Position numbers and translations under genes: made by a program. A stretch of 64,000 bases of DNA, from NCBI GenBank assembly GCA_032718865.1, contig JALUTQ010000001.1, positions 1,240,001-1,304,000 on the forward strand, in the 5' to 3' direction. The notes under the pieces are model-generated. The model was not told the origin of the DNA, ran no database searches, and saw nothing but the letters and a program-made list of their open reading frames with translations. Shown piece after piece: positions 35,228 through 60,384 of this stretch. Within the stretch, counting starts at the first letter, position 1. Each line of letters opens with the position of its first letter. This stretch comes from Tilletia caries. Its lineage: Eukaryota > Basidiomycota > Exobasidiomycetes > Tilletiales > Tilletiaceae.

Positions 35228-38200
35228 ATGGTTCGTCCTACGACGCTTCTATCGGCGCGAAGATCTCCTGCTTTGATCTCCCGCCATGAACTCGGCTTAA
35301 TTGACGTACTCTGTCCGAAATGCGGCGCACTAAACTGGACAGCAGAACGGTCCGACGGAAGCGTTGCTTCTCCAGTCTTTGGGTCTTGCTGCTCAAGAGG
35401 CAAGATCGTCTTGCCCAACATCTTTGATGCTCCCGCCCAGGTCCGAGGTCTGTACACAGGAGAAAGAGAGCTCGCAGTGCGTTACCGTCACCACTCTCGA
35501 ATGTACAACAACGCCTTCGCCTTCACATCCCTAGGCGTGCGTCGAGACATGACAGTTGCTGGCCAAATGGGGGTCTACACCTTCAAGATACAAGGCCAGC
35601 TATGTCACAGGATGGGGTCGCTTCTACCGCCTGAAGGTTTATCTCCTGCATTTGCTCAAGTCTACTTTGTGAAAACAGACCCTGGCTCTTCAACCGGAGT
35701 TCGAGTACAACAAGCGAACCAATCTTTGGACGTCGACACAGTTGCGATGTTGGACCAAATTCTTAGTCAGGTCAACCCCTACGCACGTCTTCTACATCAC
35801 GCAAGACCCATTCTCGAGCAACTGACGTCTTCGACCGATGATGTCGCAATCAAACTACTGCAACCTGGACGAGACACCGGCGCCGATCCACGAACGTACA
35901 ACCGTCCCTCCGTTTCGGAAATTGCAGCCCTTATCGTCACTCCCTCCGGGTCCGACTTCGATGTTGCACCAAGGGACATTGTAATTCGATACCGCTCGGG
36001 GGACATACGCCGCGTTTCACACCTGCATGCTGCTTTCCTGCCACTCCGCTTTCCGGTCCTCATACCGTACGGCCATTTCGGTTGGCACGATGCCATTCTG
36101 CTCGGACAATTCCCACGAGAACTGTTTTCTGCAGATCCTGCCGTTGCTGCTGCAGCACTGGAGGATCCAAACGGTGAGTTTGTCCATTGTACTGTGTTCA
36201 GCATTCAAATCTCCCTGCTCACTTTTTCTGGCATGTATGTTCCTTCCAGTTGTTCGGGGACGTGGGCGAGGAGGCTCCGTTCATGTGACACTTGATCAAT
36301 TTCACGCATACCATCTCCATCAGCGGCAACATTTCTCGACACTCTTCTTCTCCAACACGCTCCTTCAAGAGTGGTTGGTCGACGCATGGGTTGTCGTCGA
36401 GCAAAACAGGATCAGCTTTCTCAACTTCAACCAAGATCTACTGCGCAGGGAGGTCTACAGTGGCTTGCAAGACGCCCTTATCAGCGGAGCCGACTTGCAT
36501 GGCATTGGAACCAGAACAATTCTGCCAAGTAGCTTCACAAGCGGACCCCGGTTCTGGCAAGCAAGATATCACGATGCCATGTCCTTGGTGCGCGTATATG
36601 GCAAGCCTGATCTGTTCGTCACAATGACTTGCAACCCGAAGTGGCCAGAGATCACTCGACAACTCAATTTCGGGCAAGTACCTTCGGACCGGCCAGACTT
36701 GGTCACTTGGGTGTTCAATCTCAAGTTGCGATGGCTGCTTCACATGCTGCTGAAGCTTCACGTTCTCGGAGTCACTGTTGCGTACGTCCACTCGGTCGAG
36801 TTTCAGAAGCGAGGGCTCCCTCATGCCCATATTCTTTTAATACACGCGGCCTCGAACAAACTCAAAACACGGGACGATATTGACACGGTCGTGTCCGCTG
36901 AGCTACCGGACCCAGCGCTGGACCCTGAGCTATTCGAAGTAGTTTCGTCTACGATGATTCACGGACCTTGCACTCCCGAGCAAGCGTGTATGAACGACCC
37001 TCGCTATCCCGGTCGATGCAGTCGCGGCTATCCGATGCCATTCCGCGAAGTCACCTGCATGGATAGCGACGGCTATCCAGACTATCGTCGACGAGACCAG
37101 GGCATCGTGGTGGAGCGTCGGGGAAGACGCAATTCGGTCTGGAATGCGGACAATACTTGGGTGGTCCCGTACAATCCTTTCCTGAGCAAGACATTTGCCT
37201 GCCATTTGAATGTCGAAGTTTGCTCCTCGATGGCCGCTGTGAAGTACCTCTACAAGTACGTCTTCAAAGGCCCGGACCATATCTCCATGCAAGCCGGTTC
37301 AGTTTCGGACAGCGAGATTGACAACTATCTCAATGCTCGCTACGTGTCCCTTGCGAAGGTGAGTGTGCTTCCTGATCACGAACCAAATAATGCTTGAAGT
37401 AGGATTGCGTTCTGATTTCAATCCGTTTGTACCATCGGGCTTCGATTCCTTCATCATAGCCATGTATCGAATGCTAACGCTACCGCTCCAGGGCATATCT
37501 CCGTCCGTTAGGACCTTGGACATTCACCTCCCCAATCAACAGTCGGTTACTTTCACCCCTGACGATCGACGTTCGGCACGAAACAGTCTCGCCGAATCCA
37601 ACGATCACTCCAAGTTGCTCGCATTCTTTGACCTATGCAAGCGCCTGCCCGAAGAGACCGCAAGTCTGACCTACGCGAACGTTCCGGACCGATTCGTGTG
37701 GAACGCCAAATTTCACATGTGGGCTCCTCGACAGCGAGGTATGGGACAGGTTGGTCGCATATACTACGTCCCCCACACGGCTCAAGAGAAATACTATCTT
37801 CGACGCCTGTTGCACGAATTCAACTGTCCCAAAAGCTTCGACGACCTTTACAAATTTGAGGAGCGAACATACACCACGTTTCGAGAAGCATGCTCGGCGC
37901 GGGGTTTATTATCGGACGACGCAGAATGGCACCGATGCCTTAACGAGGCCGCACTGTTCCAAACTGGAGCCGCTCTGCGTCACCTGTTCTGCCTCATCAT
38001 TTTCCACAACGACGTTGAAGACATCCCTAGCCTCTACGATGGACACAAATTTGACCTTGCCGATGACTTTGCGTTTCAGCTACGCCGCAGAGGCATTCAA
38101 GATCCCGTTCAAGAACGAGCTCTCTCGTTTTCAAGGCATCTTTTGAACGTTGAGCTCAGCCAGGTCGCCAACGAACGGACGCTTGCCGACTTCGGAACTC

Positions 38201-39077
38201 CTCCACCTGATGACGCCTTTGCTGCCGATACCTCTGCCATCCCGTCTCCAGTTGCTCGAGAACAGCAGTGGAACGCGGAGGAGCAGTCGGCCCTCTCTGT
38301 CCAACGATACGAGCAGATGAACGAGGATCAACGTTCAGTATTTTCGGTGGTTACGGCAGCGGTGAATCTCAACGAACCTGCTCTGTTCTTTCTACAGGGA
38401 TCCGGAGGATACGGCAAGGCGTTTGTGATGAATGCCATCATGGCGCATGTCCGCGGTCGCAATCAGATCGCTATTGCCGTTGCATCCTCGGGCATTGTAT
38501 CTTTGATGCTGGAGGGAGGAAGGACAGCACATTTCCGATTCAAGTTGCCTTTGTAAATGGACAACGCATCATCGTGCTCGATCAAAGCTCAATCGGAATA
38601 CGCTCACCTCTTTCGACGCACGGCTCTCATCGTTTGGGACGAGGCACCGAAGCAAAGTCGGTATGCATTCGAGGCCGTCGACCGTATGCTACAGGATGTT
38701 CGCAAGGACAATCGCCCTTTCGGTGGGTCGTGGGTGCACTGTCCTGTTTTCAGGCGATTGGAAACAGACACTTCCGGTTCAACGCAAGGCATCTGAAGCG
38801 CAGATCATCTCCATCTGCCTACACAAATCATACCTGTGGACTCCCATGACCCAATTGCAGTTGAACATCAACGTATGCCTTCTTCAGTCGACCGCTACCG
38901 ACCAGGCAGCCCAACAAGCATACGCAGACTGGATTCTCAGCGTTGGAACTGGACAAATCAGTACAGACGATGGGAGACTGGAAGTACTTCCTCATCTTCG
39001 AATGTACGCAGAAAACATCGAACCACTGTGCGACTTTGTCTACAACGATTTCAGAACGTCGAACGAGACAAGGGCTG

Positions 39078-56730: not shown

Positions 56731-56914
56731 AGAGAAAAGCGAAGGAGTGGAAGGAGGGAAAGAAGGGTCAGTGAGAGGGAAGGCGAGAGTGCGTCAGCGC
56801 AAGTACGTTACCGGTACACGGATGCGCAAACTGTAGTCTGACGTTGTCCCTCTCTCTCGTAATCGCCCCAAGGAAGAGAAAGGTGTCTTTGTGTGTGTGT
56901 GGGTGTCAACGCTC
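56731..56914. other. spacer with TG-repeat
   Basis: Purine-rich sequence and a short GTGTGTGTG tract; no gene. Confidence 0.4.
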
Positions 56915-57598
56915 GGCAACTTACCAACTTACCTAACTACAACTGCGGGTAAGTTAACTTAAACTAGTTAAACTGTGACGAAACTGCGGGCGGCGGAGCC
57001 TCCGGAAAAATTAATTCAACTTAAACTATATGGGCCCGGACACGGTAACTTATAGTCACTAGAAGTTGCCGTTCGCAAGCCGAAGATTTGACCCAACTTA
57101 CAGTTACTCACAGCTACTTACAGTGCGAACTTATAGCTACTTACAGTTACTTACAGTTAATTAAGTTACTCACAGTGCGCACAGTAACTATCACGACTAT
57201 AGTAGTCAACTATCAATAACTGTGTCCAGTAACTAACAATAACTGGAACAAGTAACTATTAACAATTGTGCCCACAACAACTATCAATAACTGTATTACT
57301 GTAACAAGTCACTATCAATATCTAAAAAACATGAGTCTTTGGAGGTAGTCAAGAGAAGAAACATGTGCGAGCAAGTTCGGAGGCGGTAAAGTACGCTCCT
57401 AAAGGCAAACTGGAACAGTACCAGACATCTTGAGGTAGATACCGCGTGAAATGGGTGACTAAGACGCGTCACGCGATTAAGTTACTATATATAACTGTAA
57501 GTGACATATGTCATATAGTGACAGGCGCAAAATCAAGTTAACTGTAATGATAGTAAGTGGATAAACTGTGACTAAATACTGCGGGCGCCGGCGCCGGG
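56915..57598. repeat. repeat cluster of iterated GTAACT/AGTTAC words
   Basis: Words such as CTTACAGTTACT, AACTATCAATAACTG and GTAAGTTAAC recur on both strands. ACTGTGACGAAACTGCGGGC (about 56974) and ACTGTGACTAAATACTGCGG (about 57565) look like two copies of one element end in the same orientation. No coding capacity. It is a separate word-iteration family from its neighbours; borders are unclear. Confidence 0.55.
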
Positions 57599-58301
57599 CA
57601 GCGGTGCAACATACTATCGATAGTATCCTACGATAGTATAGTAAGTATACTATATATTGTATACTATTTACGCAATATACTATAGTATGCCGCTAATTGT
57701 CGGCATTTTTTCGATGGTCATACTATATACTATTTGGTTTTGGCGGCGGTAATATAGTATGACTATAGTATGTTTTGCCTCACTTGCGGAAAATCATACT
57801 TAAACTATCCTACTGTAGCATACAAGTGTACTATAGTACTCAAAAAGTATACTGGATGTATCTTCTTTTTATACTATAATACACTTTCAGAGTAGTATGA
57901 AAATAGTATCCTAGAAACATCCACAATAGGATGTATCTAGTATCATTGCAAAGAGCTTGATATATACTAAAATATACTATTTCAAGCCTATAGTATACTT
58001 CTAGTGCATTATACATGTCATCAAAACATACTAGCTCTATCCTATAATACACTTTTAGTGTCATATTCAGGCATAATTCGGCCAGGAATTGTCATTGTAT
58101 ACTATAGAATGAATATAGTAGACTTCAAGTGGCATATCATTTACGCCGCATACTATAGTATACTTTAAGGAGACAGTATATACTATTTGCATACTATGGA
58201 TAGTATGTGGCTCATTTTCAAAAAAAAAACATACTATATACTATAGTACTTTCTGACTCAAAAGTGACATACTATAGTATAATCAATAGTATGCATCACT
58301 G
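57599..58301 (+). mobile_element. TACTATAGTA-word MITE, left copy
   Basis: It begins CAGCGGTGCAACATACTATC and ends AGTATGCATCACTG. Almost the whole length is iterations of TACTATAGTATA-like palindromic words. It has imperfect ~10-bp TIRs. Confidence 0.8.
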
Positions 58302-59545
58302 TCGATCCGTGCCCCGCCAAGATCGAAGAGCACGACAAGCGACACCACAACGGTGAGGTACTAGCACTCTTTGTTCCAGTCTAACTGCTGCTCTCAAACT
58401 CAACTGATGCAAGTTTGCTCTCTTTTGCTTGTCTCGCTTCAGGTTCCTTCCACATCCTTGTCACAGCTGCCCTACGGACTTTACAGATCGAGGCTGGACT
58501 TCGCTTCCTACCGGTCGCGCAGCTTGACGCGCCCCTGAGAGCGGTGCCGGGTCTCAGAATCGTTGATGGGTTCGGATGTGGCGAGGCGGACTGCCTGTTC
58601 GCGGCGCGGGCTGCCGATCTGGTGTGGGAACATCAACTGGCCAGTCACGGAGCCGAGGAGACACAGGTTGCGGTCAAGGTTCAAGGCTGGACAGTCGCCT
58701 CCGCTTTCGTATGGCAACTTCAAGACAATGCCGAGTCGCAGATCGCATCGGCTTCAAGGGCGCGCGCCAAGACGGCAAACATGCTCCGCCTCGAAGACAA
58801 AGCAGTTCTGATGCGCCCGCCGGGTTCGATCCAAGTCCCGATCTCAAGTTTTAACGAGCTCGACGACCTCAAGCTCGCTCGCGATCGAACCCGCGAGTTT
58901 CACGCCGATGCACTTCAAGGCTTCATCGAGGAAATTTCGCAAGAGCCGCATCGCTTCCAAAACTACGACATAGGCCCGGACACAGCTTTTCACATCAACT
59001 GTGCCATCTCCATCCTTTCGGCACTCTCCTTCGGCATCTACTTGGTATGGAGGGCACGGCAACTTCGGGCGAGGATTCCTGACGCCCTGCGGACAGAGGC
59101 CGTCGTCCATCTCGGCACGCTCGGCGACGCGTTCGACCTGAACGGCCAGGCTCGTAACGCCTGCCACCGCCTAGATCAAGCCCTCGGAGGAGTACCGGTG
59201 GAAGAACAACTCCCTGCCGAGCGTACTCAAGGCCCCGAGGCTGTCCGGGATCTTGTTGCGGCCGCCGTCGAAGACCAGCGGCTCGGCGAGGTGTACGCCC
59301 ATGTTCTCCGGGCGGTGACCCCCTCCAACCAGAGGCATCGGCTGCTACTCAATGCCGCGCACAGTATGTGGGCGGTGCGCGCCTTGCTCGTGCTCAGAGT
59401 TCGGAGACAAAACCACGGCGCATCGGACCGCAAGATGCAGGAGCGGTACAGCTCAGCCGCCCAGGCGCCGGGCTTCCTCAAGGCCCTGGATCTCGAGATC
59501 CACGAGCACCTCGACGACGCAAATCGAGAGGGGTTGCCTCGTAAG
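58302..59545 (+). pseudogene. captured gene fragment inside the composite element
   Basis: A 51-nt exon piece (VDPCPAKIEEHDKRHHN) splices across a GT-AG intron (58354-58442) to a long open exon: GSFHILVTAALRTLQIEAGL, then VDGFGCGEADCLFAARAADL with VWEHQLASHG. The Cys/His arrangement there resembles the single C2H2-like finger of fungal DUF3505-type proteins; this is a tentative match. A helical region with possible membrane segment (AISILSALSFGIYLVW) follows. The frame has no native start or stop: it begins at the left MITE and runs 36 codons into the right MITE (stop at 59653). It is therefore a piece of a larger gene, cut at both sides. Confidence 0.6.
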
Positions 59546-60257
59546 CAGTGGTGCAACATACTATCGATAGTATCCTACGATAGTATACTATATATTGTAT
59601 ACTGTTTACGCAATATACTATATATTGTATACTATTTACGCAATATACTATAGTATGCCGCGAATTGCCGGCATTTTTTCGATGGTCATACTATATACTA
59701 TTTGGTTTTGGCGGCGGTAATATAGTATGACTATAGTATGTTTTGCCTCACTTGCGGAAAATCATACTTAAACTATCCTACTGTAGCATACAAGTGTACT
59801 ATAGTACTCAAAAAGTATACTGGATGTATCTTCTTTTTATACTATAATACACTTTCAGAGTAGTATGAAAAAAGTATATTAGAAACATCCCCAATATGAT
59901 GTATCTAGGATGATTGCAAAGAGCTTGTTGTAAACTTAAGTATACTATTTGTGGGCTATAGTATACTTTTTATTGCGTTATATCTGTCATAAAAACATCT
60001 AGCTCCATCCTATAATACACTTTTAGTGTCATATTAAGGCATAATTCGGCCAGGAATTGTCATTGTATACTATAGTATGAATATAGTAGACTTCAAGTGG
60101 CATACAATCTACGCCGCATACTATAGTATACTATCAGGAGATAGTATATAATTTTGCATACTATGGATAGTATGTGGCTCAAATTCCAAAAACATACTAT
60201 ATACTATAGTACATTTTGCTTCAAAAATGACATACTATAGTATAATATGCATCACTG
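59546..60257 (+). mobile_element. TACTATAGTA-word MITE, right copy
   Basis: Same orientation and ends as the left copy (CAGTGGTGCAACATACTATC to ATGCATCACTG). It differs by scattered substitutions and a ~35-bp tandem duplication near 59580-59640, so the copies have diverged independently. Confidence 0.8.
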
Positions 60258-60384
60258 GCGCCGGGTTCCAAGCTCCGGAGCACCCCGGAGTTTCGGGGAA
60301 ACTCCGCACTCCGTCTGGAATTCGAGGCTATTATGTTTCATGGGCAATGGATGTCATATTCTGACTATAGCGGTGGCGCTCGGG
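60258..60384. repeat. fragment of the GGAG-word MITE family
   Basis: CCCCGGAGTTTCGGGGAAAC and CTCCGCACTCCGTCTGG match a segment at about 18350-18390 within the 17822 element. It is a displaced piece, possibly the target of the composite insertion. Confidence 0.5.

What the first reader, a model, noticed from the sequence alone, without database searches (positions are those of the whole stretch)
57591..60265. Composite hAT-type transposon: two direct MITEs carrying a captured, intron-containing gene fragment
Seen: two direct 700-bp MITE copies with a gene fragment between them, an identical 8-bp flank (GCGCCGGG) only at the outermost ends, and non-matching inner flanks. Known: hAT transposases duplicate 8 bp and recognise short TIRs. 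Inference: the outer tips of two MITEs were used as one transposon, moving host sequence like a bacterial composite transposon. An alternative is that aberrant gap repair inserted the gene fragment and a second MITE copy into a single original insertion. Either way it is a gene-capture route for non-autonomous elements.
Basis: partly seen in the sequence, partly recalled or inferred. Interest (0 to 1): 0.88.

Follow-up and report, generated by a model that had tools for sequence, protein, structure and literature searches.

The report
Two miniature transposons carrying gene piece
In a wheat bunt fungus, two small same-family jumping elements and the gene piece between them appear to sit at a new site as one unit, an unusually clear snapshot of a gene-capture route already proposed for plants.

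Summary
Two directly repeated, full-length MITEs (57599-58301, 59546-60257) enclose an intron-containing gene fragment (58302-59545); only the outermost ends share an 8-bp flank, GCGCCGGG.

Four added tests. (1) The site lies inside another repeat, E1. In 18 of 18 E1 copies compared it is unfilled and none carries two GCGCCGGG. After the right copy the window still reads E1 (TTCCAA) before another repeat begins. (2) 13 of 17 other two-tipped copies of this MITE carry 7-8/8 duplications. (3) The two MITEs differ at 45 of 690 positions (6.5%); each is closer to other copies, so neither is a fresh duplicate of the other. (4) A paralogue on contig C25 runs uninterrupted past the point where the second MITE sits.

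Best reading: the outer tips of two neighbouring MITEs moved as one macrotransposon, the published model for plant Pack-TYPE elements and maize Ac/Ds macrotransposons. Main rival: recombination into a MITE already resident in E1; a nearly identical left tract in the two MITEs keeps it alive. One copy; no donor locus and no partner transposase found.

The parts
56907..57598 (+). E1: left part of another ~740-bp MITE family (tips CAAGGCTCGGC..GCCGAGCCTTG), the target of the insertion
   Evidence: 40 other matches, 36 of them reaching the right end of the stretch; 40 of 100 candidates scored
57591..57598 (.). left copy of the 8-bp target-site duplication GCGCCGGG
57599..58301 (+). M1, full-length hAT-type MITE; 5' tip CAGCGGTGCAA, 3' tip TGCATCACTG
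58302..59545 (+). captured gene fragment: short 5' exon piece, intron 58353-58442 (by gene model), 1.1-kb exon open to the M2 border; below-cut-off matches to OrsD and DUF6082
59546..60257 (+). M2, full-length MITE in the same orientation; 5' tip CAGTGGTGCAA, 3' tip TGCATCACTG; stands 4 codons before the stop of the C25 paralogue
60258..60265 (.). right copy of the target-site duplication GCGCCGGG
60266..60271 (+). TTCCAA: continuation of the E1 target repeat
60272..60326 (+). E4: start of another abundant repeat, which cuts off the rest of E1
   Evidence: 39 other matches, 37 of them from query base 15 = 60272; 40 of 102 candidates scored
60326..60662 (+). E3: further dispersed repeat next to it
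   Evidence: 40 of 242 candidates scored

Best explanation
Two MITEs of one hAT-type family had inserted separately, in the same orientation, at two points of a gene: one within its 5' part, one just before its stop codon. A transposase supplied in trans then paired the outer 5' tip of M1 with the outer 3' tip of M2 and moved the 2,659-bp MITE-gene-MITE block as a single element into an E1 repeat, making one 8-bp duplication. Shown: the anatomy, the duplication, the unfilled target repeat, the divergence of M1 and M2, and the uninserted gene border in a paralogue. Inferred: the order of events, the transposase and the donor locus.
For: Outer flanks 8/8, inner flanks 3/8 and 1/8. Target unfilled in 18 of 18 E1 copies compared, with E1 sequence continuing 6 bases past the right duplication up to the E4 repeat. 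13 of 17 other two-tipped copies show 7-8/8 duplications; L015, with the same CAGCGG tip as M1, is one of them. M1 is nearest to L016 and L022 (22/687, 22/683) and M2 to L015 (17/682), while M1 and M2 differ at 45/690, as expected for two separate insertions. The C25 paralogue reads CTCGTAAG then CGACCGCGCGTTTGA where the window has CTCGTAAG then M2, so M2's inner border looks like an ordinary insertion junction. The Tilletia controversa protein P0001 fits a gene model that starts inside M1 and splices at the M2 border, so the same unit probably exists in a second species. The mechanism is published for Pack-TYPE elements (PMC8903248, section 9 read) and for maize macrotransposons (passages of PMC9910405 and PMC3260210).
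Against: The composite was found once in this genome, so no second jump shows mobility. No donor locus was found. In M1 positions 48-305 M1 and M2 differ at only 2 of 258 bases and share a state at position 61 seen in none of 14 other copies, which points to exchange between them or a shared source. No transposase with matching tips was identified: of 82 hAT-domain matches 3 lie within 8 kb of a tip, each beside a MITE copy. 4 of 17 two-tipped copies lack a duplication.
Confidence: 0.62

Rival explanations
1. A single MITE sat in E1 with its GCGCCGGG duplication. Homologous recombination or break repair with a MITE-gene-MITE locus elsewhere (for instance a circle formed between the two direct MITEs) then brought in the gene and a second MITE. 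M1 and M2 would be recombinants of the resident and the incoming MITE.
For: M1 and M2 share a nearly identical tract at M1 48-305 (2/258 differences) although the rest differs; run of 49 variable sites at 104-302, 0 of 2000 shuffles as long. M2 is L015-like to about 440 and L019/L017-like after it. Such a tract fits crossover or conversion.
Against: It needs a resident MITE at exactly this place plus a donor that already is MITE-gene-MITE, an extra step. Long shared runs also occur between copies at unlinked loci (M1-L015 52 sites, L016-L017 42, L020-L025 64), so the tract is partly a slowly changing region and partly general exchange in the family. Later conversion between two direct repeats 2 kb apart would give the same tract.
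Confidence: 0.27
2. Gap repair after excision of one MITE copied in the gene fragment and a second copy of the same MITE.
For: Would give the same outer duplication; M1 and M2 agree closely at 48-305.
Against: M1 and M2 differ at 45/690 and each is about twice as close to other copies. Both inner tips are complete, which filler repair would not by itself produce.
Confidence: 0.06
3. The gene is resident here and two MITEs inserted on either side; the matching outer 8-mer is coincidence.
For: 4 of 17 two-tipped MITE copies lack a matching duplication, so unmatched flanks alone are not rare.
Against: The flanks on both sides read as one E1 repeat that is unfilled in 18 of 18 copies compared; the chance of an 8/8 match is about 1.7e-5.
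Confidence: 0.02

Closest known systems
Pack-TYPE (Pack-hAT) elements of plants; model 'mobilisation of neighbouring insertions' (PMC8903248: section 9 read, other passages seen)
   Same: Two same-family elements close together in the same orientation, outer tips used as one element, DNA between them captured; in that paper rice groups AB and BB look like two fused elements, AB with extra DNA between
   Different: Here in a fungus, found once, with both MITEs and all four tips still recognisable, so possibly an early stage
Ac/Ds macrotransposons of maize (PMC9910405 and PMC3260210, passages read; Huang and Dooner 2008 seen only as a citation, not held)
   Same: hAT superfamily, 8-bp duplication, two linked elements moving together with the DNA between them
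   Different: In maize excision and reinsertion were recovered; the end elements there are Ac/Ds, not ~700-bp MITEs; here movement is inferred from sequence only
hAT transduplication of a histone H3-like gene in Pyrenophora tritici-repentis (PMC3538342, passages read)
   Same: Fungal hAT element carrying a non-transposon gene
   Different: There a single element, in a long form with transposase (10 copies) and a short form that keeps the hAT dimerisation domain (16 copies); here two MITEs, no transposase, one copy

Membership tests
hAT superfamily MITE | 8-bp target-site duplication | tested here: met
   13 of 17 other two-tipped copies 7-8/8; also L083; exceptions L021, L023, L029, L033
hAT superfamily MITE | short terminal inverted repeats beginning CA(G) | tested here: met
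   CAGTGGTGCA / TGCATCACTG, one mismatch; that hAT tips look so is recalled
hAT superfamily MITE | mobilised by a hAT transposase with the same tips | tested here: inconclusive
   82 hAT dimerisation-domain matches at E <= 0.1, 79 over the cut-off; 3 of 82 lie within 8 kb of a tip, each beside a MITE copy, none seen enclosed by the tips
Pack-TYPE / macrotransposon | two same-family elements, same orientation, short distance | tested here: met
Pack-TYPE / macrotransposon | one target-site duplication around the outermost ends only | tested here: met
Pack-TYPE / macrotransposon | enclosed DNA comes from another locus | tested here: inconclusive
   paralogue fragments on C25, C32, C19 and a weak one on C6 but no donor locus
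Pack-TYPE / macrotransposon | copies of the whole unit at several loci | tested here: not met
   one copy in this genome; probable same unit in T. controversa from P0001
Pack-TYPE / macrotransposon | observed excision or reinsertion | not testable with these tools
   needs live material or many strains

The most novel reading that the evidence does not exclude
A fungal Pack-hAT caught at its first step: two MITEs with no transposase have carried an open 1.1-kb exon to a new site, where the MITE sequences now supply start, splice sites and end of a predicted chimeric gene (P0001) present in at least two bunt species. That would make MITE pairs a general gene-moving device outside plants.
Probability: 0.3. 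Interest if true: 0.62.

Novelty: new member of a known kind. Interest (0 to 1): 0.45.

Why it matters
How transposons without their own genes pick up host genes is an open question, and the plant model (two neighbours moving as one) is argued largely from comparing related elements. Here both source elements, all four tips, the single duplication, the unfilled target repeat and one uninserted gene border can all be read. If the one-unit move is confirmed in strains, it extends the model to fungi and gives a clean test case.

Tried and rejected
Second composite: besides M1-M2 the only same-strand pair of exact 5' tips within 5 kb (C30:746772 and 750403) is a 20-bp tip fragment and a broken MITE, with an E1 copy and a ~300-bp direct repeat (LTR-like, seen by eye) between them; not a composite. 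Pairs with mutated tips would be missed. Copies with unmatched flanks were checked for partners: L033 and L034 agree in 7 of 8 bases, about what chance allows over 25 x 26 comparisons (my arithmetic: about 0.25 expected), and only L033 lies against an E1 match; L029 and L031 share a 1.58-kb duplicated stretch at 92%. Partner transposase: tip CAGTGGTGCAA stands at 56 places; two candidate loci were fetched: L083 is a 207-bp deleted MITE and L084 a palindrome, with no hAT-domain match inside its two tips. Donor locus: DNA, protein and C25 downstream-flank searches gave only fragments (one search also gave 3 weak partial matches elsewhere, not followed). The rest of E1 beyond TTCCAA was not found to the end of the window. 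The M1/M2 mosaic analysis could not separate one-unit movement from recombination. Solved structures: no match to the gene fragment. Papers: no held paper joins MITE, composite transposon, gene capture and fungi; MITE with macrotransposon gave one cabbage paper (listing only); Tilletia, MITE and transposable elements gave two unrelated papers. These are word searches of one open-licence library.

Full report
Where it is. The window is C1:1240001-1304000 of a 38.1-Mb genome in 40 contigs. Two contig lengths (2,689,501 and 1,798,756) equal the largest contig and N50 reported for Tilletia caries TC1_MSG, a 38.18-Mb assembly of 46 contigs (PMC10684912, passages), so the window is most likely from that wheat bunt fungus. 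The only protein-database match to the gene fragment is P0001 of Tilletia controversa (1 hit among the 7,999 candidates that were scored).

The anatomy. M1 (57599-58301) and M2 (59546-60257) are full-length direct copies of one MITE family with tips CAGYGGTGCAA and TGCATCACTG. Between them lies 58302-59545. The outermost flanks are GCGCCGGG on both sides; M1's own flanks agree in 3 of 8 bases and M2's in 1 of 8. Exact tips of the family number 27 (5') and 29 (3') in the whole genome, so two full copies 1.9 kb apart on one strand is notable. The only other same-strand pair of exact 5' tips within 5 kb, on C30, is not a composite.

The target. The left flank, 56907-57598, is the left part of another MITE family, E1, with 40 other matches listed (40 of 100 candidates scored; 36 reach the right end of the stretch). 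Eighteen E1 copies whose DNA I held were compared at the insertion point: 15 of 18 have exactly one GCGCCGGG, 3 of 18 have a variant without it, 0 of 18 have two, and all read straight on. A nineteenth, in L082, is also unfilled by eye, with a variant of the 8-mer; it is not in the count. In the window the sequence after the right GCGCCGGG reads TTCCAA, as E1 does, and then an abundant repeat (E4) begins at 60272 (37 of 39 other matches start at exactly that base). So both flanks are one E1 repeat and the 8-bp repeat is a real duplication. The last ~60 bp of E1 were not found in the window, so the right side was rearranged later.

The family rule. I looked at the flanks of 23 of the 37 MITE loci fetched. 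Of these 23, 17 have both tips, and 13 of the 17 carry a 7-8/8 duplication; L021, L023, L029 and L033 do not; the other 6 lack a tip. One further short copy (L083) also has the duplication. This fits hAT transposons; the 8-bp duplication is described for Ac/Ds (PMC3260210, passages). The genome has 82 hAT dimerisation-domain matches, 79 over the cut-off. Three of the 82 lie within 8 kb of a listed tip, each beside a MITE copy, and I found no element that encloses such a gene between these tips.

Are M1 and M2 two insertions or one copied? Over the whole length M1 is nearest to L016 and L022 (22/687 and 22/683 differences) and M2 to L015 (17/682) among 14 full copies, while M1 and M2 differ at 45 of 690 ungapped positions. 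They are not a fresh duplicate pair. Against a fully independent history: in M1 48-305 they differ at 2 of 258 positions and share one state (position 61) absent from all 14 other copies, and two more shared only with L015 (203, 265); M2 changes affinity near position 440. A run test gives 49 shared variable sites, 0 of 2000 shuffles as long, but other pairs also show long runs (M1-L015 52, M2-L015 60, L016-L017 42, L020-L025 64). Exchange between MITEs has very likely happened; whether it made the composite or came later cannot be told.

The gene. The 1.1-kb exon is open to the M2 border and beyond. P0001 is reproduced by a model that starts at 58196 inside M1, splices to 58290 near the M1 end, has the intron 58353-58442 and splices out at GTAAGC of the gene-M2 junction, with one residue different. 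The acceptor in M2 is not unique: four sites fit equally. So T. controversa very probably carries the same unit. Pfam gives only below-cut-off matches, to OrsD (E 0.0017, for P0001 0.00066) and DUF6082 (0.0023). Paralogue fragments exist on C25 (90% over 481 bp of the query), C32 (77% over 241 bp), C19 (two short protein-level matches) and, weakly, C6 (39%). The C25 copy runs through CTCGTAAG into CGACCGCGCGTTTGA, four codons and a stop. It shows what the gene looks like without M2. No donor locus was found.

Mechanism. The readings I rate highest need a locus where MITEs stood on both sides of the gene. Movement by the two outer tips explains the anatomy in one step and follows a published model: two neighbouring elements mobilised as one with the DNA between (PMC8903248, section 9 read), where 12 of 15 local hAT pairs in maize had the same orientation. 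A maize Ac macrotransposon has been seen to excise, leaving a modified 8-bp duplication (PMC9910405, passages). Recombination into a resident MITE remains possible. I put these at 0.62 and 0.27.

Novelty. The kind is known in plants. A fungal hAT element carrying a non-transposon gene is known too (PMC3538342, passages), but as one element, not a MITE pair. My eight word searches listed no fungal MITE pair of this sort; I saw listings and abstract starts, and the library is limited. I rate it a new member of a known kind, unusually complete as a snapshot.

Noticed in passing
L085:646-3843 (C3:1330245-1333442): A 3.2-kb unit with 481-bp inverted arms (99% identical) enclosing about 2.2 kb with open frames; tips like those of the present MITE family and E1 remnants lie inside the arms. 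Possibly another gene-carrying inverted-repeat element, or an assembly foldback.
   Followed up: partly
L083:3716-3922 (C4): A 207-bp internally deleted copy of the MITE with an 8-bp duplication GTTAGCAT, showing that very short versions exist with their own duplication.
   Followed up: partly
window 36027-38553: Helitron-like N-terminal domain (E 4.2e-57) followed by a PIF1-like helicase frame: a Helitron in the same window.
   Followed up: no
L013:4563-5365 (C25): The paralogue of the captured gene is itself a truncated pseudogene joined to a Kelch-repeat frame on the opposite strand, with a 216-bp gap relative to the window.
   Followed up: partly
L029 and L031 (C4): A MITE copy and its right flank are part of a 1.58-kb segmental duplication at 92% identity.
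   Followed up: no
L082 and L050 (C30:746600-751900): A ~300-bp direct repeat beginning TGTACTAGATAGCTGG stands at both ends of a stretch inside an E1 copy: an LTR-retrotransposon-like insertion, seen by eye.
   Followed up: no
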